From: Hellea sp.
Lineage (GTDB): Bacteria; Pseudomonadota; Alphaproteobacteria; Caulobacterales; Maricaulaceae
Direction: 5' to 3'
NCBI GenBank assembly: GCA_020627655.1
Contig: JAHDGM010000001.1
Span: 11,222-75,221 of the forward strand
Length of the DNA: 64,000 nucleotides
The first letter of the stretch is position 1, and every line of letters begins with the position of its first letter. Shown piece by piece: positions 20,458-28,882 of this stretch. Below the pieces are notes generated by a model. It saw nothing but the letters and a program-made list of their open reading frames with translations. It made no database searches and was not told the origin of the DNA. The position numbers and the translations under genes are program-made.

Positions 20458-21063
20458 TTATGAATTTCGATTATAGGCGGTTATTAGTAGTCCGCATAAC
20501 CCGCCTATAATGACTCCATAGAAATGAGCATTAACGACTACGTCGCCGCCTGAAGCCGGTTGGGTGAAAGGGACAGGGCCTATTATTTGTTCATAGATGA
20601 TTTTTCCAGAAAGACCGATTATCATGATCGCGCTTTCCCATGGGAATAGTGACGGTTCTGTCTTCATTTCTTGTTGGAGGCCGGCAATTACAGCAGCGGC
20701 CATAAAACCATGCAATACGCCCGATAGGCCCACATAGGATTCTATATCTGTATCGAAAATTGTAAATCCAAAGCTGATCCCAAGACTGATAAACAAAAAC
20801 ATTATCAACCAAGTGGAGGCTTTAAATAGTTTTCCATATAAAATCCAAATCAGAATGAAACCGGATGCGTTCAGCAAAAGATGCCGCCATCCCAGATGCG
20901 TAAAATGTCCGCTGATAGCTCGCCAATACTCACTGTTTTGAAACCAGTCACCCTGATATTGGAAGAGGCTTCGCGCGTTAGGGTGATAAAGCTCAATGGC
21001 CGCGGCCAAGACTAAGATCAGTGCCGGAAATATCCAGAATTTATATGACCGAGTATTGTGCAT
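20458..21063 (-). CDS. rrtA: Rhombosortase (rhomboid-family intramembrane protease)
   Basis: This 201-residue membrane protein has about six transmembrane segments. Rhomboid catalytic features are GLSGVLHG (nucleophile Ser) and a His in NAHFYG near residue 180. Its short size and the N-terminal pattern HFTHLGWRHLLLNASG match rhombosortases (TIGR03902), which cleave GlyGly-CTERM anchors of exported proteins. Two genes upstream in the same direction lies a protein with exactly such a C-terminus, so the enzyme and its substrate are co-located. The 3' end encodes an inverted repeat (20470-20511). Confidence 0.87.
   Translation of the reverse strand: MHNTRSYKFWIFPALILVLAAAIELYHPNARSLFQYQGDWFQNSEYWRAISGHFTHLGWRHLLLNASGFILIWILYGKLFKASTWLIMFLFISLGISFGFTIFDTDIESYVGLSGVLHGFMAAAVIAGLQQEMKTEPSLFPWESAIMIIGLSGKIIYEQIIGPVPFTQPASGGDVVVNAHFYGVIIGGLCGLLITAYNRNS
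20470..20511. repeat. Inverted repeat at the nrdA/rrtA convergent ends
   Basis: ATTATAGGCGG (20470-20480) and its exact complement (20501-20511) frame a 20-base centre. The arms extend by TTAT/ATAA with one bulged base. It lies within the last codons of rrtA and about 20 bp after the nrdA stop. There is no T-run, so it may slow or process convergent transcripts rather than terminate them. Confidence 0.45.
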
Positions 21064-21578: not shown

Positions 21579-24422
21579 TTAAACGCTCCCAGTAACTACG
21601 GCTTGAGCTTGCTTTTTCCTAGCTCGCTTAATTCTGGCCGCTTTCATTGATCGTCCAAGATTTAAAAGCAACAGAGTGAACAAGCCAAAGCTACCGCCAC
21701 CAGATGAGGATCCTCCTGTGAAGGAAGCGCCACCTGCTCCGCCTCCAGAACCACCTGTTGATCCGCCGGTCGAGCCACCAGCCGAGCCGCCGCTACTACC
21801 ACTTGGCGCGCTTGTAGCTTTTACGTCAATCGTTACACTGGCCGTATCAGTTCCGCCTTTACCATCGCTAATGGTATAAGTGAACGTCTCTGACCCAGCG
21901 TAACCATAAGCAGGTTCATAGTTGATTGCGGTGCCTTTAATAGTCGCGTAACCGCCATTATTGGGTTCGCTCACAGCGGTGATGGTCAGGGTATCTCCAT
22001 CAGGGTCGCTGTCATTGGCTAGCACGTTCAAATCAGTGGCTGTGCTGTCCTGATCAACGGAATAGGTATCCGCCTTTGCGGTAGGTGCACTGTTTGTAGA
22101 TGTCGCGACCGCATTGACGGTAACCGATACTTTGGCAGTTGCAGTCCCGCCTTTGCCGTCACTAACAGCGTAGGTAAAACTTTCCACGCCGCTGAAACCG
22201 CTGGCTGGTTGATAATCAATACGGGTTCCGTTGACAGTTGCGGTGCCGCCATTGCTGATGTTTGTTATTTCAGTAATGGTCAATGTATCGCCATCAGCAT
22301 CAGAGTCATTATCCAGAACAGCAAAGCGTGTTACGCCGCTATCCTGCTGAACAGTAAAGCTGTCAGCATTAGCAATAGGCGCTGTGTTGACACTGCCTCC
22401 ACCGCCGCCGGAACCGCTAATAGTAATCGTGCCTTTGTTTACAGCAAAGAATGGCTGATTTGTGCACTTGATCCTTAGGCGTCCATTGGTTGTGGCATTA
22501 CCCGGAACGGTAATCTGCTCACTACCATCATTGGCCGCGCCGGATTTGAGCATGACGGAGAAATTCTGTCCGCCATCAGTGGACAAACCAATATCAACCT
22601 TTGCGCAGTTAATAGGCGCAGCTGTGGTATTGGCAACATCCCATGACACGGTCTGAACACTATTTTGCGCCCAGGAAACTGCCGCTGATGGTGCAGTGAC
22701 AGTAAACGGGCCCGCATCTGCACTTACAGTCAGTTTAAGACTATCTGTAGCAACGCCGCCTTTGCCGTCACGAACTGTAAAGCGGAAGTTCAAATCACGG
22801 GCCGTGGTTGGCAAAACTTCACCATAGGTCGATGAACCACTCAGTACATCTCCCAATTTCGGAAATACCCGACTAGGAGAAGCCGTAGGCGTGAAGGAGC
22901 GGAATAATGGGCGCTTACCATCATCCGTAAGGCTGGCTTTACTGGTGGTCGTAGGACCTAGATCATATTGCTCCCAAGCATAAGTCAGGTTGTCGCCTGC
23001 ATTACTATCTGTAGCAGTGCCCGTTAGAATAAATGGTGTTGATTTAGGGATAGCGCCATCGCTACCTGCATTTGGTACAGGGACAGCGTTGTTCAGGCTT
23101 TTTGCGACCCCGCAACTACCACCCGTACTGCTATTAGCAATGAAACCGCTGATTTCAGCAATAGAGTGCGTATGGAAATACACATCACTTTGGGACTGGA
23201 GGTTTTCATCGTCACATAAGCTGGCATATGCCATTATAGTAGATCCACTACCGGGTTCATAGGCGGCCGTATCACTACGATTACCGCTACAGCCACCGGC
23301 TGAACCGTTGAACGTATGGTCAGCGTGAAATTGGTGTCCAATTTCATGGGCGACATAGTCAATGAAAAACGGATCGTTTATGGGACTGTCACTGCCTGTA
23401 ACACCCTCAGCTTTAGCATCGCCACAAACAACGCCGAAGCCAGCTAACCCGCCGCCGCCCGTGCTGAAAACATGGCCGATATCATAATTAGCAACGCCAA
23501 TTTTTGCGTTGATATCTTTGCCAACTTCCTCGATCAGGCTATCCGCACTATTATCTGTAAATGGGTCGGAACTGGCATCGGTGTAAACAATGTCAGAATT
23601 ATTAGCCACGAGTTCAAGCTTAATAGCGACATCTCTTTCATAGACCTGATTGACACGATTAATACCGGTTACAATAGCAGCCATAGCTTTTTCTTTGGTT
23701 CCGCCATGAAAGGCTGTGAACTCTCCAGTGGCCGCAACGGCAAGACGGTATGTTCGCAGCTCCGTCCCGAAAGAAACATCCGGTTTTTGAGCGCGGTTAT
23801 AAGCAGCTTTATCAAAGCGGGTCATATTGCCTGCCGCTTTGGCTTTGCTCTCACGTTCATGGAAGCCGCAGTTAAAGGCAGGTTTGTTTTTGCCGCCCAT
23901 TTCAGATGTGTAATCGCCCTTGTAATAGGATTGGTAATTATCTCCTACAGGATCAATGAAGATAGTTTCTCCATTTTGAGATAGCATTCCGTGGAAGCCG
24001 TCAGGGGTGAGATCCAGACGTCCTGTATTATCGGGATTGTTGATGTCCACAACTCTATAGGTTTTTATGTCAGGATATTGCCGGGCCAGGCTAGGAGCCA
24101 TAACCGGAGAGCTGAACACTCTGTATTTGGCTAATTGTCCATTGGGCAGAGGCAGCTCAACAATAGCGCTGGAATTACCCAGTGCTTCATCGGGTGCCTG
24201 ATTTAATAGATATTCAAGCTCGGTTTTATCAAGCTGTAAATGCCGTCCACGCGTAACCGAGGGTGTTTGTGTCTTTAAGGATTGGGGCGCAGTTTTCTTT
24301 GCTTTTGCCGCATTAATATCCTGCCAGATTTCAGCATTTGCTTGCATACTAAAACCCAGTCCGACGGCCAGAAATGTTGAAACTAACAATCTGTTTCGAA
24401 ATGTATTTGTGTTGTTTATCAT
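21579..24422 (-). CDS. Secreted reprolysin-like metalloprotease with GlyGly-CTERM anchor
   Basis: This 947-residue exported zinc protease has a signal peptide (to about residue 30), a propeptide region and a metzincin catalytic domain. The zinc site HEIGHQFHADH starts near residue 359, followed by a Met-turn (STIMAYAS). Beyond it lie a beta-rich domain and two cadherin/Big-like repeats (about residues 670-865), each containing DxDGDTLTIT and FTYxxSDGKGG. The C-terminus is a Gly/Ser-rich linker, SGGGSFGLFTLLLL, then a basic tail: the GlyGly-CTERM tripartite signal cut by rhombosortase. rrtA lies two genes downstream. An ECF-type promoter lies 30 bp upstream. Confidence 0.9.
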   Translation of the reverse strand: MINNTNTFRNRLLVSTFLAVGLGFSMQANAEIWQDINAAKAKKTAPQSLKTQTPSVTRGRHLQLDKTELEYLLNQAPDEALGNSSAIVELPLPNGQLAKYRVFSSPVMAPSLARQYPDIKTYRVVDINNPDNTGRLDLTPDGFHGMLSQNGETIFIDPVGDNYQSYYKGDYTSEMGGKNKPAFNCGFHERESKAKAAGNMTRFDKAAYNRAQKPDVSFGTELRTYRLAVAATGEFTAFHGGTKEKAMAAIVTGINRVNQVYERDVAIKLELVANNSDIVYTDASSDPFTDNSADSLIEEVGKDINAKIGVANYDIGHVFSTGGGGLAGFGVVCGDAKAEGVTGSDSPINDPFFIDYVAHEIGHQFHADHTFNGSAGGCSGNRSDTAAYEPGSGSTIMAYASLCDDENLQSQSDVYFHTHSIAEISGFIANSSTGGSCGVAKSLNNAVPVPNAGSDGAIPKSTPFILTGTATDSNAGDNLTYAWEQYDLGPTTTSKASLTDDGKRPLFRSFTPTASPSRVFPKLGDVLSGSSTYGEVLPTTARDLNFRFTVRDGKGGVATDSLKLTVSADAGPFTVTAPSAAVSWAQNSVQTVSWDVANTTAAPINCAKVDIGLSTDGGQNFSVMLKSGAANDGSEQITVPGNATTNGRLRIKCTNQPFFAVNKGTITISGSGGGGGSVNTAPIANADSFTVQQDSGVTRFAVLDNDSDADGDTLTITEITNISNGGTATVNGTRIDYQPASGFSGVESFTYAVSDGKGGTATAKVSVTVNAVATSTNSAPTAKADTYSVDQDSTATDLNVLANDSDPDGDTLTITAVSEPNNGGYATIKGTAINYEPAYGYAGSETFTYTISDGKGGTDTASVTIDVKATSAPSGSSGGSAGGSTGGSTGGSGGGAGGASFTGGSSSGGGSFGLFTLLLLNLGRSMKAARIKRARKKQAQAVVTGSV

Positions 24423-24451
24423 CGGGTCTTCTCCTTTGCTGATACTAAGAA

Positions 24452-24477
24452 GACGGATGAAGGGCCGACTTTATTCC
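24452..24477 (-). promoter_or_regulatory. ECF-type promoter of the metalloprotease-rrtA operon
   Basis: On the minus strand GGAATA (24477-24472), exactly 16 bases, then CGTC (24455-24452), 30 bases before the start codon. The same element precedes the sigma gene and the HExxH peptidase gene. Confidence 0.65.
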
Positions 24478-24500
24478 ATTTTATTTTAAAAAAATTCGAC

Positions 24501-24528
24501 AAAGAAAAAACGGGCTAGAAGCCCGTTT
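24501..24528 (-). terminator. Intrinsic terminator of the HExxH peptidase gene
   Basis: An eight-base-pair stem AAACGGGC/GCCCGTTT (24508-24515 with 24521-24528) with a five-base loop is followed on the minus strand by a T-rich run (TTTCTTT). It lies 15 bp after the stop of the gene at 24543-25322. Confidence 0.8.
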
Positions 24529-24542
24529 CATTTGTTTGAATA

Positions 24543-25322
24543 TTAGCCCGTTTGATAACGGTCCCTGATTTTCATGAGTTCAGGAAAGTCATATAAATAT
24601 CTGACTTTTTGTTCTGCCAGGCTATGCCCGTCAGGCTTAGGTTCCATGACAAAAATGGCAAAGGTTTCGGCAAAATCTTCAGCCAGGTTTGTTGCTGCAT
24701 ATTCGGAAACGAAAGCTGAAGGGGCTTTGTTATAAGGGTTGAACACAGCATCTTGTTTGAAACGCCCTTGCCAGAACTTTTGATAAAAAGGATAGAGGTA
24801 AGAGCTGGCTTTGAGACAGCCTTCATCCATTTCCAGGGTTGTGCACTTATCATCAGATGTTTCCAGCTGATCGTCATTTAGGCTCAAAACATGGGCGACC
24901 TCATGAATAGCTGTTTGTTTGAGATCTGTTCTGTCCCCTTCATGGGCGTCTACATCCACAACAATCTCCCAGCGGGCGCCATCTTCAGAAATCGGGCCGG
25001 CAAATGCTGAACCGTCATTGGTCTCGGCCAGGACTACGCGAGCAAGATATTTATCGGATATATGCGTTGGAATAACTTTTCTGATCATTTCAACGGTAAG
25101 TTTGTCGTCCGAAGTTTTAATATCGGCTGAACTTACCGGCACAAACTCTTTGCCTTTAGCGACATTAAACTCATGTCTAACAAAGCCTAGTTCGGTATCG
25201 TAAAAACCATAATCCTCATAATCATCCCAAGTAGGAATCGCAGCGCTGACATCCGACAGGGCGAATCCGGCTCCGACAAGCATGGCGGAGAACAAAGATA
25301 TTTTTAAAGCTGATTTTTGCAT
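24543..25322 (-). CDS. Secreted HExxH zinc metallopeptidase, family unassigned
   Basis: This 259-residue protein has a signal peptide (to about residue 27, ending VSAA). The motif H140-E-V-A-H144 is followed about 70 residues later by EDFAETFAIFV, whose Glu is a plausible third zinc ligand in a gluzincin arrangement. The pair C-x8-C (CTTLEMDEGC) may form a disulfide. I chose ATG 25322 because AGGAG lies six bases before it; ATG 25328 directly abuts the Shine-Dalgarno sequence. It follows the anti-sigma gene but has its own ECF-type promoter. It may be a protease released under envelope stress; the substrate is unknown. Confidence 0.75.
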   Translation of the reverse strand: MQKSALKISLFSAMLVGAGFALSDVSAAIPTWDDYEDYGFYDTELGFVRHEFNVAKGKEFVPVSSADIKTSDDKLTVEMIRKVIPTHISDKYLARVVLAETNDGSAFAGPISEDGARWEIVVDVDAHEGDRTDLKQTAIHEVAHVLSLNDDQLETSDDKCTTLEMDEGCLKASSYLYPFYQKFWQGRFKQDAVFNPYNKAPSAFVSEYAATNLAEDFAETFAIFVMEPKPDGHSLAEQKVRYLYDFPELMKIRDRYQTG

Positions 25323-25354
25323 GATCATCTCCTTTTTGATGTTTACATGTTGGA

Positions 25355-25380
25355 GACGATTGAGGCGGCAAATTTATTCC
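25355..25380 (-). promoter_or_regulatory. ECF-type promoter of the HExxH peptidase gene
   Basis: On the minus strand GGAATA (25380-25375), exactly 16 bases, then CGTC (25358-25355), 33 bases before ATG 25322. The -35 element directly abuts the stop codon of the anti-sigma gene. Confidence 0.65.
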
Positions 25381-25381
25381 G

Positions 25382-26101
25382 TTATTTTTGCCATTTTTTT
25401 TGAATTAAGGCTTTTTCCTGCTCTGTCGATAAAACGTCATCCTTCATAAGGCTATCGACAAGACTGTCAAAAGCTTCTGAAGATTCGGCGCTTGCTGTCG
25501 CATAGCCGCCGGATGTCCCATTCTGGGGGGCGTGTGATTGAGATATGACGGTCCAGCCTTGCCGGCTTCCGCAGGCCAGTCCGCGGGATGTCGGGCTTGT
25601 GAATTCCCGGCAGTAATTCCCATCAGATGATTTGAAAGACAATAAAGGGGTTAGCCCGTCCCGACTTTCCCCGCTAGGAAGTGACGATAAAGCTGCGTAG
25701 AGCTTACTGTCTGGGTTAACTGGGCCCGTTGCAATCATATCAATGGTCGAGGATTTATTTGAGACAAATGTCTGTGATGCGAAAAACCCTATCATTAAAG
25801 ACGCGGCAATTGCCGTTGGAAACTGCCATAGATTACGTTTGTTTTTGTGGTCGGAAAAGCTGACAATATTAGTTGGCTGTTCGTCGGGTTTTTCATCCAG
25901 CATTGCCAGAATGGATGCAGGGATTGGCGCGTCAGTTACAGGGGCAAATGTTTCTTTAAGTCGTTCATCGACCGCTGTTAATGCTTCGAGCCTTGCCAAA
26001 AGCTGTGGATCGACCTCGATTGCTTTTTCTATGGCGTTCATATCCGCCTCGGACAGTTCGCCGTCTAAAAAAGCTGATAATTGTTCGTCTGTATATTTCA
26101 T
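25382..26101 (-). CDS. Transmembrane anti-sigma factor
   Basis: This 239-residue protein begins with the anti-sigma N-terminal pattern TDEQLSAFLDGELSEADMNAIE, followed by a helix-rich cytoplasmic part. The HxxxCxxC zinc motif is not present. One transmembrane helix (about residues 93-112) leads to a periplasmic domain with two cysteines (GNYCREF and LACGSRQG), which could form a redox-sensitive disulfide. It starts 12 bp after the sigma gene, the classical sigma/anti-sigma order. Degradation or unfolding of the outside domain would release the sigma factor to the three matching promoters. Confidence 0.88.
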   Translation of the reverse strand: MKYTDEQLSAFLDGELSEADMNAIEKAIEVDPQLLARLEALTAVDERLKETFAPVTDAPIPASILAMLDEKPDEQPTNIVSFSDHKNKRNLWQFPTAIAASLMIGFFASQTFVSNKSSTIDMIATGPVNPDSKLYAALSSLPSGESRDGLTPLLSFKSSDGNYCREFTSPTSRGLACGSRQGWTVISQSHAPQNGTSGGYATASAESSEAFDSLVDSLMKDDVLSTEQEKALIQKKWQK

Positions 26102-26113
26102 ATCTGTTATCTT

Positions 26114-26602
26114 TTATGACCCTAATAAGTCTTTGAGATCAAACTGTGCTGAGAGTTCTTTTCGCGCTCTAGCAACACGGCTCATTATCGTGCCTATGGG
26201 CACTTCCAAGGCTTCGGATGCTTCTGCATATGTAAAGCCCTCAATAGCGACCAGTGCGAGAGCCTCGCGTTGGTTATCCGGTAAGGCTTGTAAGGCTTTC
26301 CCAACTTGCGATACTGCAATTTTTTCCAGCGCTGTTGCGACACCGTCTTCACTGTGGCGGTTGCTGTCCTCGCTTTGTTCATCAGGAGCGCGCCGTATTT
26401 TACGATATCGTGTTTCATCTATCCACGCATTGCGGCACACTCGAAAGGCCCATTTTCCGATATGTGCCCCTTCAGGCACGCCGCGCTTTAGGATGCGTTC
26501 GACGGTTGTTTGCAGTAAATCATCCGCATCGGCTGCTGAGCCGGTGAGCGATAATGCAAACCGCCGTAAATTCGGCAAGAGGCTGATTAACTCTTCTCTC
26601 AA
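26114..26602 (-). CDS. ECF RNA polymerase sigma factor
   Basis: This 162-residue group IV sigma factor has region 2 (LPNLRRFALSLTGSAADADDLLQTTVERIL, WAFRVCRNAWID) and region 4 with its helix-turn-helix (FTYAEASEALEVPIGTIMSRVARAR). The start is unusual: the best ribosome-binding site serves an ATG at 26615 that is followed by AGA and TAA. The sigma frame then opens at TTG 26602, four bases after that stop. The gene is preceded by an ECF-type promoter of the same form as two protease promoters, implying autoregulation. It is divergent from the subtilase. Confidence 0.92.
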   Translation of the reverse strand: MREELISLLPNLRRFALSLTGSAADADDLLQTTVERILKRGVPEGAHIGKWAFRVCRNAWIDETRYRKIRRAPDEQSEDSNRHSEDGVATALEKIAVSQVGKALQALPDNQREALALVAIEGFTYAEASEALEVPIGTIMSRVARARKELSAQFDLKDLLGS

Positions 26603-26606
26603 GACT

Positions 26607-26615
26607 TTATCTCAT
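26607..26615 (-). CDS. Two-codon minigene ATG-AGA-TAA before the sigma gene
   Basis: AAGGGAG, four bases, then ATG-AGA-TAA, then four bases to the TTG start of the ECF sigma gene. The TTG itself has no ribosome-binding site at normal distance, so initiation at the minigene followed by restart is plausible. TGAGA is repeated either side of this stretch, so a 13-bp insertion into an original ATG-AGA-GAA start is an alternative. Confidence 0.4.
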   Translation of the reverse strand: MR

Positions 26616-26641
26616 AAAACTCCCTTCTGTTTTACCTTATT

Positions 26642-26667
26642 GACGAATAAGCGCCATAGATTATTCC
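26642..26667 (-). promoter_or_regulatory. ECF-type promoter of the sigma/anti-sigma operon
   Basis: On the minus strand GGAATA (26667-26662), exactly 16 bases, then CGTC (26645-26642), 40 bases before the sigma start. It is identical in both hexamer/tetramer and spacing to the other two elements. Confidence 0.65.
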
Positions 26668-26684: not shown

Positions 26685-27965
26685 TTGAGTTTTATGTTTG
26701 CTTGCTTACAAATTCGTCTTTTGCTTAGGGCATTTGCAATCCTTATTTTCGGTTTGCTCAGTGTACAACCTTGTGCATGGGCGCAGGACTATGAAGACGA
26801 ATTTCCAGATGAAATCGACTGGGAATTTATCGACATGCTGGACGCATTGGACGGTGTTAATGAAGCGGATATTCTGGACGACTTTGATATTGAGCTGGAC
26901 AAAAACGGCCTTGAAGCCGCTCTGAATGAGTGGATTATTATTGCTGATCCGGGTGAATTTGGAGCTATTCGTTCCATTGGAATGACAATTGATCGTATTG
27001 AGCCCCTAGAAGGCCTCGGCCTTGCAGTGGCAAGGGTACAGACACAGGGTAATTTATCTCTGGATCAAACTCAGGCAGCCATTTCAGCCGTTGCGCCAAG
27101 TGCCGAGATTGATCTTAATCATATTTACAGACCAAGTCGGAGCAAAAGCAGCCGACGAAAAGGATTGGCTCCAAAAACTCTGCTTAAACTTCCATCAGGT
27201 TTTACAGGGAAAGGACAAAAGATCGGCGTTATCGATACCGCTGTAAACTTGAACCACCCTGTGTTTGAAGCCGCAAATATTCACACGGCAGATTTTGTAG
27301 AACGTAAGCTTGAACGGCCGCGGGACCACGGCACAGCTGTCCTGTCAATTTTAGCAGGGCAGTCACAAGACTATGCTGGCTTGTTACCTGATGCTGAATA
27401 TTATGCGGCTTCTGTGTTTTTTAAAACAAAGGATGGAGGGCGCACGGCGACTACGGATAGCCTTGTCAAAGCAATCAGCTGGATGAAGGAGAAGAATGTT
27501 TCCGTGATCAATATGAGCCTAACAGGGCCTCCGAACCGGGTTTTAAAGCGAGCGATAGACGCGGCGGTTACTAGAAACACTGTGGTTATTGCCGCCGTTG
27601 GTAATGAGGGGCCTAATGCTCCGCCTCTATATCCGGCTGCTTATACGGATGTGATTGGGGTAACCGCGGTGTCGGATAGTAAAAAAGTTTACCGCCTTGC
27701 AGGCAGGGGAGATCACGTCGATTTTTCTGCGCCGGGGGTTAAGTTGCGTCATGCTGCAAAATCCAAAGCCTATAAGACGTCGTCAGGTACTTCGATGGCG
27801 GCGCCCTTCGTGACAGCTGTTATAGTTTCAAGCGCTGCGACGGATAATATTTTTTCTGATGGTTTTATTGATAAGCTTAAATCAATGGCTGAAGATTTAG
27901 GGGCTGTTGGTTTTGATCCGGTTTATGGTCATGGATTGATCAAGACAAATTCTTCATCGGGATAA
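26685..27965 (+). CDS. Exported subtilisin-family (S8) serine protease
   Basis: This 426-residue protein has a signal peptide ending AWAQ near residue 33, an acidic segment (DYEDEFPDEIDWEF), a pro-domain to about residue 150, and the catalytic triad D184 (VIDTAV), H215 (RDHGTAV) and S370 (SGTSMAAP). The oxyanion Asn lies in AAVGNEG. The start is TTG with AGGA eight bases before; ATG 26694 is an alternative. It is divergent from the sigma operon, but I find no GGAATA-N16-CGTC on its strand, so it may not belong to that regulon. The acidic segment after the signal peptide is unusual. Confidence 0.88.
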   Translation: MSFMFACLQIRLLLRAFAILIFGLLSVQPCAWAQDYEDEFPDEIDWEFIDMLDALDGVNEADILDDFDIELDKNGLEAALNEWIIIADPGEFGAIRSIGMTIDRIEPLEGLGLAVARVQTQGNLSLDQTQAAISAVAPSAEIDLNHIYRPSRSKSSRRKGLAPKTLLKLPSGFTGKGQKIGVIDTAVNLNHPVFEAANIHTADFVERKLERPRDHGTAVLSILAGQSQDYAGLLPDAEYYAASVFFKTKDGGRTATTDSLVKAISWMKEKNVSVINMSLTGPPNRVLKRAIDAAVTRNTVVIAAVGNEGPNAPPLYPAAYTDVIGVTAVSDSKKVYRLAGRGDHVDFSAPGVKLRHAAKSKAYKTSSGTSMAAPFVTAVIVSSAATDNIFSDGFIDKLKSMAEDLGAVGFDPVYGHGLIKTNSSSG

Positions 27966-27967
27966 CT

Positions 27968-28882
27968 CTAAAAAACATTTCCCACTCTAAGGCTCAGAAC
28001 TGTTTTCTTGTAATCTACAAGGCTCAAATTTGAATTATAATCCCGATATTTCAGGTCTAGCTCTAGATAAGCATTAGAGTGGATCGGAGTTTTCCACGAT
28101 GCGCCATAGGTGAAACGGTCATCTGAGCGTTCGTCATTAATGACAAAGTTGATCGCTTTATAATCTCGGCTTTCATATTTTGCCGATAATTTTAGAGTTG
28201 TATCTTCTTTCCAAACGGGAAAACGGTGGACATATTCGGCCTGTAATCTATGTTTATTATAGGCGAGTTGCTGCTCAAAGGCACCGACATCTTCATAACG
28301 ATAACCAACAATAAAAAATTGTCGTGAGCCGTTTAAAAAATGATAGCCGTCAATACCAAATCCATGAGTATCGCCATCTCGTTCAGGTCGCTCATCATAC
28401 TTTCTGTCACTGAATGTATAGTTGGCCCTGAGAAAGTTTTTACGACCAAAATAACGGCTTACATAGGGCGATATTTGCTTTGCTGTGATGTATTCAGAGC
28501 CGTCAATTGACGCCTGTAGGTAGCGTCCAGTTACGCCTAATTTTGTTCGTCCGAATGTATGAGCTAGATCAAGGGTTCCTAAATGGTAATGTTGGTCAAA
28601 TTGGGAAAACTCATCATAATCCTTTGTAGAGAAGACATAACTGGCTTTTGCCGTTAAATCATCATTGAAATCATGTTTGGCTGTTCCTTTAGCGCGGAAA
28701 AGAAATGCAATATCATCAAGGCCGGATGCAAAATCGATATCACTGATGGTTACATTGCTATCATGTTCAGCTCCCAAGCTGACATCCAGACTGAAGTCAC
28801 TGGCTTGTGCGTAGGCAGTATTTGTAAGGCCGACTACCATAGCGGCTATACTAATCACGCGTCTGTGAGCTATCCAAAACAT
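27968..28882 (-). CDS. Outer-membrane beta-barrel protein
   Basis: This 304-residue protein has a signal peptide cleaved after AYAQ near residue 26. The rest is alternating strands rich in Tyr, Asp, Arg and Phe (for example HYHLGTLDLAHTF and YLELDLKYRDYNS), and it ends in Phe, the outer-membrane assembly signal. The early AEHDSNV resembles the barrel of DUF560/surface-lipoprotein-assembly-modifier proteins, though the family is uncertain. It converges on the subtilase gene with two bases between, so both may lack a terminator there. It could be an export or surface partner for the nearby proteases. Confidence 0.7.
   Translation of the reverse strand: MFWIAHRRVISIAAMVVGLTNTAYAQASDFSLDVSLGAEHDSNVTISDIDFASGLDDIAFLFRAKGTAKHDFNDDLTAKASYVFSTKDYDEFSQFDQHYHLGTLDLAHTFGRTKLGVTGRYLQASIDGSEYITAKQISPYVSRYFGRKNFLRANYTFSDRKYDERPERDGDTHGFGIDGYHFLNGSRQFFIVGYRYEDVGAFEQQLAYNKHRLQAEYVHRFPVWKEDTTLKLSAKYESRDYKAINFVINDERSDDRFTYGASWKTPIHSNAYLELDLKYRDYNSNLSLVDYKKTVLSLRVGNVF

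What the first reader, a model, noticed from the sequence alone, without database searches (positions are those of the whole stretch)
21579..26667. ECF regulon: three identical GGAATA-N16-CGTC elements
On the minus strand, GGAATA, exactly 16 bases, then CGTC occurs 40 bp before the ECF sigma gene (26667-26642), 33 bp before an HExxH peptidase gene (25380-25355) and 30 bp before the reprolysin-like protease operon (24477-24452). Identity in both halves and in spacing is what an ECF sigma factor needs. The inferred circuit: envelope signal, anti-sigma inactivation, sigma release, and production of two exported metalloproteases plus rhombosortase, with positive feedback.
Basis: partly seen in the sequence, partly recalled or inferred. 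Interest (0 to 1): 0.8.

Follow-up and report, generated by a model that had tools for sequence, protein, structure and literature searches.

The report
Sigma-factor switch controlling surface proteases
Three identical promoter signals tie a bacterial stress-type switch gene to itself and to two neighbouring gene sets for exported proteases and a protein-sorting enzyme; the switch is of a known kind (ECF26), but its link to this protease-sorting cargo was not found described.

Summary
GGAATA-N16-CGTC occurs three times in the window (0.06 expected), each 26-40 bases before a start codon. It is very probably a real promoter set. In two relatives (67-77% sigma identity) all three promoters recur, one in front of a protease operon that has moved. 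The motif precedes 31 of 52 homologous sigma genes from alpha- and gammaproteobacteria, but 0 of 14 control ECF genes. GGAAT/CGTC is also the published, mapped consensus of ECF26 sigma factors (S. meliloti RpoE4, Starkeya SigE). The locus matches the S. meliloti rpoE6 locus: sigma, anti-sigma, divergent S8 protease. The regulon looks purely local: allowing one mismatch, the genome holds 60 matches against 60 for the reversed control. The cargo is lineage-specific. An HExxH peptidase-like gene was found only with this sigma. The reprolysin/lipoprotein/rhombosortase cassette also occurs in relatives without the close sigma, and there lacks the promoter. I found no paper linking rhombosortase to an ECF sigma factor. 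Signal, transcription starts and actual control are untested.

The parts
26642..26667 (-). ECF-type promoter 1 (GGAATA-N16-CGTC) before the sigma gene: autoregulation
   Evidence: conserved in L038 and L058 and before 31/52 homologous sigma genes
26607..26624 (-). Leader: Shine-Dalgarno GGGAG (26624-26620) and two-codon mini-ORF ATG-AGA-TAA (26615-26607), 4 nt before the sigma TTG start
   Evidence: same architecture in L038 and L058 with a different second codon
26114..26602 (-). ECF sigma factor, 162 aa, TTG start (ECF26/RpoE6-like)
   Evidence: Pfam sigma70 r2 and r4; 43% identity to S. meliloti RpoE6; tree
25382..26101 (-). Anti-sigma factor: cytoplasmic N-domain, one apparent membrane span, periplasmic domain with two invariant cysteines
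   Evidence: RseA_N and zf-HC2 below cut-off; 25% identity to EcfR6; both Cys present in 14/14 aligned anti-sigmas
25355..25380 (-). ECF-type promoter 2, -35 box begins 1 nt after the anti-sigma stop codon
   Evidence: conserved in L038 and L058
24543..25328 (-). Exported HExxH zinc peptidase-like protein, 261 aa (likely start ATG 25322)
   Evidence: HEVAH and the LAEDFA stretch invariant in 3 homologues; weak zincin hits below cut-off; in only 2 of 99 genomes searched, G000 and G003
24507..24529 (-). Intrinsic terminator-like hairpin closing the HExxH unit
24452..24477 (-). ECF-type promoter 3 before the reprolysin operon
   Evidence: conserved in L038 (CGTC) and L058 (CGTT)
21579..24422 (-). 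Reprolysin-like (M12B) metalloprotease with Ig/cadherin repeats and C-terminal Gly-rich / hydrophobic / basic tail (GlyGly-CTERM-like, about 21579-21790)
   Evidence: Pfam Reprolysin_4 4.8e-34; TIGR03501 sub-threshold hit at 21663-21701, the only one in the genome
21128..21577 (-). 149-aa predicted lipoprotein (lipobox STGC), no Pfam family
   Evidence: travels with the reprolysin in G003, G028, G040, G049
20458..21063 (-). Rhombosortase
   Evidence: TIGR03902 143 bits, cut-off 84
26685..27965 (+). Divergent S8 subtilase, conserved core partner; no ECF motif of its own here
   Evidence: Pfam Peptidase_S8 1.7e-32; divergent S8 beside many homologous sigmas, including S. meliloti rpoE6
27968..28882 (-). 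14-stranded outer-membrane beta-barrel, conserved core partner in this sub-clade
   Evidence: AlphaFold mean pLDDT 89; Foldseek best matches CymA and OmpG

Best explanation
This is a small, self-contained ECF26-type (RpoE6-like) regulon. The sigma factor is held by the membrane anti-sigma factor encoded just downstream. When an extracytoplasmic signal releases it, the sigma factor directs RNA polymerase to three adjacent promoters with GGAATA at -35, N16, and CGTC at -10. These drive (1) sigma plus anti-sigma (feedback), (2) an exported HExxH peptidase-like protein, and (3) an operon of a reprolysin-like surface metalloprotease, a lipoprotein and a rhombosortase that probably processes the protease's GlyGly-CTERM-like tail. 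Shown by sequence: the promoters, their conservation, the lack of further pre-start copies in the genome, gene order and domain content. Inferred: sigma dependence, anti-sigma action, the processing step. Unknown: the signal. The two invariant periplasmic cysteines of the anti-sigma factor suggest a redox or sulfur-related cue, and the adjacent S8 protease may act in signalling; both are guesses.
For: Three exact sites against 0.06 expected. All three promoters recur in L038; in L058 two are exact and the third, before a relocated reprolysin operon, is GGAATA-N16-CGTT. 31 of 52 homologous sigma genes carry GGAATA-N14-17-CGTY within 200 bp upstream, against 0 of 14 control ECF genes. A matrix from foreign loci picks out only these three. 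The published mapped ECF26 consensus is -35 GGAAT / -10 CGTC; the S. meliloti rpoE4 promoter reads GGAATA-N16-CGTC; RpoE6 activates its divergent serine protease (PMC6180224, PMC6527743). Same layout as rpoE6/ecfR6/S8. Three relatives (G028, G040, G049) carry the reprolysin and lipoprotein genes without the close sigma orthologue and show no GGAATA promoter before them. The HExxH gene was found only with this sigma.
Against: No transcription or start-site data. L038 and L058 are close relatives, so part of the conservation is shared descent. About 40% of the homologous sigma genes lack the strict motif. The GlyGly-CTERM model scores below its cut-off. The anti-sigma Pfam hits are sub-threshold. 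The tree fork joining the window clade with RpoE6 has moderate support, 89/92.
Confidence: 0.87

Rival explanations
1. The elements are promoters, but read mainly by another ECF factor of the genome, such as the general stress sigma EcfG (consensus GGAAC...CGTT), so that the local sigma is only one target.
For: ECF15 and ECF26 promoters resemble each other, and RpoE6 and RpoE2 regulons overlap in S. meliloti (PMC6180224).
Against: The three sites are GGAATA/CGTC, not GGAAC/CGTT. No other pre-start copies were found in the genome, unlike a general stress regulon. The motif tracks this sigma clade (31/52) and is absent upstream of 14 other ECF genes.
Confidence: 0.08
2. Partial regulon: promoters 1 and 2 are ECF-dependent, but the reprolysin/rhombosortase operon is expressed mainly from another promoter, the ECF site being a minor input.
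For: The cassette exists in relatives without the close sigma or the motif, so it can be expressed otherwise.
Against: The third promoter is kept in both close relatives, including the relocated operon in L058, and a terminator-like hairpin isolates it from upstream read-through.
Confidence: 0.12
3. Chance or repeat-derived similarity without function.
For: Allowing one mismatch, the genome shows no excess over the reversed control pattern (60 against 60).
Against: Exact sites are clustered at three consecutive pre-start positions; spacers differ while boxes are conserved within and between genomes.
Confidence: 0.01

Closest known systems
ECF26 group, Sinorhizobium meliloti RpoE6 (SMa0143) / EcfR6 / serine protease SMa0142
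   Same: Sigma and anti-sigma in tandem, divergent S8 protease, GGAATA-type promoters, strongest targets near the sigma gene; 43%, 25% and 36% protein identity to sigma, anti-sigma and S8.
   Different: RpoE6 targets (glyoxylase-family gene, the S8 protease, hypothetical genes) differ and number about 40; promoters there have mostly N15 and CGTT, here N16 and CGTC; here S8 has no motif, and a 14-strand barrel is part of the core; separate clade in the tree.
ECF26 RpoE4 / SigE sulfite-oxidation regulons (S. meliloti, Starkeya novella)
   Same: Same promoter class: -35 GGAAT, -10 CGTC; rpoE4 promoter is GGAATA-N16-CGTC; small regulon, anti-sigma encoded beside the sigma (PMC6180224, PMC6527743, PMC3511301).
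   Different: Cargo there is sulfite dehydrogenase; here exported proteases and rhombosortase.
Dedicated GlyGly-CTERM / rhombosortase pairs (Haft and Varghese, PMC3237569)
   Same: A single putative target gene lies close to rhombosortase, as in most single-target genomes.
   Different: A lipoprotein gene lies between them, and the operon is under an ECF promoter; no paper in the library holds both 'rhombosortase' and 'ECF sigma'.

Membership tests
ECF26 sigma factors (RpoE6-like) | Two-domain ECF sigma (regions 2 and 4) | tested here: met
   Pfam Sigma70_r2, r4, r4_2 above cut-off
ECF26 sigma factors (RpoE6-like) | Groups with a reference ECF26 member apart from other ECF groups | tested here: inconclusive
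   Falls on the RpoE6 side, away from the control ECFs, at 89/92, in a separate clade of 12 rows at 100/98; no ECF26 model and no RpoE1/3/4 sequences were on hand
ECF26 sigma factors (RpoE6-like) | Target promoters -35 GGAAT(A), -10 CGT(C) | tested here: met
   consensus from PMC6527743 and PMC6180224
ECF26 sigma factors (RpoE6-like) | Downstream anti-sigma with N-terminal domain, membrane span and periplasmic C-terminal domain | tested here: met
   Alignment with EcfR6 shows the same layout; the span was judged by eye
ECF26 sigma factors (RpoE6-like) | Divergent serine protease gene (RpoE6 subtype) | tested here: met
Rhombosortase (TIGR03902) | Curated model score over cut-off | tested here: met
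   143.1 bits, cut-off 84
GlyGly-CTERM protein (TIGR03501) | Tripartite C-terminus over curated cut-off | tested here: inconclusive
   Gly-rich / hydrophobic / basic tail is visible, but 10.5 bits against a cut-off of 15.5
Surface lipoprotein assembly modulator (SlipAM) for the barrel 27968-28882 | Slam barrel with its N-terminal TPR domain | tested here: not met
   SlipAM hit 31.9 bits over cut-off 22, but the 304-aa protein is a signal region plus a 14-strand barrel with no room for a TPR domain; best folds are CymA and OmpG
ECF regulon | Transcription of targets depends on the sigma | not testable with these tools
   Needs RNA data

The most novel reading that the evidence does not exclude
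An ECF26-like sub-clade shared by alpha- and gammaproteobacteria is a portable switch (barrel, S8 protease, sigma, anti-sigma with a periplasmic cysteine pair) whose cargo is exchanged between lineages while the promoter is kept. In this lineage it captured a rhombosortase-processed surface protease system, making protein sorting to the cell surface inducible; barrel and S8 protease may form the sensor.
Probability: 0.35. Interest if true: 0.6.

Novelty: new variant of a known kind. Interest (0 to 1): 0.42.

Why it matters
It gives a compact, testable case in which a dedicated surface-sorting protease (rhombosortase) and its target would be induced on demand by one ECF sigma factor. It also extends ECF26-type regulation from sulfite oxidation and unknown roles to exported proteolysis. 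Comparison across relatives shows how a regulon core stays fixed while its cargo changes, with promoter gain or loss visible at the sequence level.

Tried and rejected
A wider regulon: exact and extended searches gave nothing at pre-start positions beyond the three sites, and the one-mismatch search showed no excess over control (its hits were not placed relative to genes one by one). An ECF site for the divergent S8 gene here: none, though S. meliloti and several relatives have one. Filing the barrel as Slam: rejected, no TPR domain and a porin-like fold. Fold of the HExxH protein: model too poor (pLDDT 54), matches not significant, so only 'zincin-like' by motif. G040's cassette has a GGAAC...CGTT element about 170 bp upstream, possibly an EcfG site or chance; not pursued. 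The search for papers holding both 'rhombosortase' and 'ECF sigma' found none; three papers hold 'rhombosortase' and 'sigma factor', each with only one or two mentions of either; they were not read.
Full report
CHECK OF THE OBSERVATION. The pattern GGAATA-N16-CGTC occurs three times in the window, all on the minus strand and at the given coordinates; dinucleotide shuffles give 0.06 on average and never three. The sites lie before the TTG-started ECF sigma gene (26602-26114), before the 261-aa HExxH gene (ORF from 25328, more likely start ATG 25322, which follows AAGGAG at a normal distance), and before the reprolysin-like gene (24422). In the whole genome (2.59 Mb, 89 contigs) the pattern occurs seven times. 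The other four lie inside ORFs or antisense to one, none ahead of a start. A form allowing N15/N16 total spacing and CGTY gave seven further sites, again none at a pre-start position. With one mismatch allowed there are 60 matches against 60 for the reversed pattern; these were not individually placed relative to genes. So the motif marks a local, not a dispersed, regulon.

WHAT THE GENES ARE. The sigma has only regions 2 and 4. The next gene looks like a membrane anti-sigma: weak RseA_N and zf-HC2 matches, one hydrophobic span, and a periplasmic part. The third is an exported HExxH protein with weak zincin similarity. The fourth is a 947-aa reprolysin-like protease with Ig/cadherin repeats and a Gly-rich, hydrophobic, basic C-terminus. 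The fifth is a 149-aa predicted lipoprotein. The sixth is a rhombosortase at 143 bits against a cut-off of 84. The GlyGly-CTERM model finds exactly one candidate in the genome, this protease's tail, at 10.5 bits, below its cut-off of 15.5. That fits a dedicated pair, which is a known arrangement (PMC3237569). Divergent from the sigma is an S8 subtilase, followed by a 14-strand outer-membrane barrel. A terminator-like hairpin lies between the HExxH gene and the third promoter.

PHYLOGENETIC FOOTPRINT. In L038 (a MAG labelled Rhizobiaceae, sigma 77% identical) all three promoters are present, each exactly GGAATA-N16-CGTC. In L058 (same genus, sigma 67%) the first two are exact. The reprolysin-lipoprotein-rhombosortase operon has moved to the far side of the S8 and barrel genes, yet is still preceded by GGAATA-N16-CGTT, and the barrel gene now follows rhombosortase on the same strand. 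Alignments show the -35 GGAATAA and the -10 CGT(C) fully kept while spacers vary. In a wider set, 31 of 52 homologous sigma genes (alphaproteobacteria, Haliea, Pseudidiomarina) have GGAATA-N14-17-CGTY within 200 bp upstream, against 0 of 14 more distant ECF genes. A simple count gives about 0.0015 expected per 200 bp. A weight matrix made only from other loci and from the published rpoE4 promoter separates the three window sites (27.7-30.6 bits) from everything else in the window (13.9 and below).

NATURAL CONTROLS. The HExxH gene occurs in 2 of 99 genomes searched, the window's own and G003, the only two with a sigma orthologue above 60% identity over its full length, plus L038. The reprolysin and lipoprotein genes also occur in G028, G040 and G049, none of which carries a close orthologue of this sigma; there no GGAATA promoter stands before them. 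In G004 and G006 rhombosortase sits beside other Gly-tail proteins, again without the motif. So cassette and sigma module are separable, and the promoter goes with the sigma. In other lineages the same sigma family has the motif before other genes: acidic or repeat-rich secreted proteins beside the barrel (L060, L039, L042), S8 itself (L118, L119, L067), and in G053 a PiT-like permease and a porin-like lipoprotein, judged by eye.

COMPARISON WITH KNOWN SYSTEMS. [quoted passage not shown] meliloti RpoE4 and Starkeya SigE (PMC6527743). The rpoE4 promoter reads GGAATA-N16-CGTC (PMC6180224). The same paper states that divergence of rpoE6 from a serine protease gene is widely conserved in ECF26, and that this protease is an RpoE6 target. 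The S. meliloti rpoE6 locus has the same layout, with 43% (sigma), 25% (anti-sigma) and 36% (S8) identity to the window. In the tree the window sigma sits in a well-supported clade of 12 (100/98) with Haliea and Pseudidiomarina sequences, next to the RpoE6-containing clade and away from the control ECFs with moderate support. I therefore call it ECF26/RpoE6-like. Formal group assignment was not possible without the published model.

MECHANISM. Best supported: sigma released from its anti-sigma reads three promoters, giving feedback plus two exported-protease units. The regulon map is supported by conservation; sigma dependence is inferred. For the signal there is only a hint: the anti-sigma periplasmic domain has two cysteines kept in 14 of 14 sequences, S. 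meliloti EcfR6 included. Given that ECF26 members RpoE1 and RpoE4 respond to sulfite-generating compounds (PMC3511301), a redox or sulfur cue is a reasonable first test, no more. RpoE6 was reported in preliminary data not to be induced by these compounds (PMC3511301), which weakens that guess.

NOVELTY. The sigma type, promoter type and S8-divergent layout are known. New, as far as the held library shows, are the cargo (two exported metalloprotease-like proteins and a rhombosortase) and the barrel-linked sub-clade. No paper holds both 'rhombosortase' and 'ECF sigma'.

Noticed in passing
window 26624-26600 (-): A two-codon mini-ORF (ATG-AGA-TAA) with a good Shine-Dalgarno lies 4 nt before the TTG start of the sigma gene. 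L038 (ATG-AGT-TAG) and L058 (ATG-GAT-TAG) keep the layout and spacing with a different second codon, suggesting translational coupling or a minimal leader ORF.
   Followed up: partly
window 25382-26101 (-): Two cysteines in the periplasmic part of the anti-sigma (CREF...AC) are invariant in 14 aligned homologues, including S. meliloti EcfR6: a possible disulfide sensor.
   Followed up: partly
L060 13400-14158; L061 6022-6930; L039 4720-5481; L042 4961-5467: Beside the barrel gene in other lineages stands a repeat-rich secreted protein; in L060, L039 and L042 it has a GGAATA-N16-CGTY promoter and in L061 a closely similar site one base shorter. Barrel and repeat protein may be a transport pair.
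   Followed up: no
L040 and L044 9494-9469 (-), L046 1334-1309 (-): In Haliea relatives a GGAATA-N16-CGTC promoter points at a stretch of about 160-250 bp downstream of the anti-sigma gene with no convincing ORF and an apparent hairpin near its end: a possible ECF-driven small RNA.
   Followed up: no
L059 620-705: In G053 two divergent GGAATA-N16-CGTC promoters face a porin-like lipoprotein gene and a PiT-like permease gene (by eye), suggesting phosphate-related cargo for the same sigma clade.
   Followed up: no
L107, L108, L124-L134 compared with window, L038, L058-L060, L118-L119: Promoter spacing differs by branch: N15 with CGTT in the RpoE6 branch and many other alphaproteobacterial homologues, mostly N16 in the window's clade.
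   Followed up: partly
L058 4036-9140: In G003 the reprolysin operon lies on the other side of the S8 and barrel genes, with the barrel gene directly downstream of rhombosortase, so the barrel may be co-transcribed with the cassette there.
   Followed up: no
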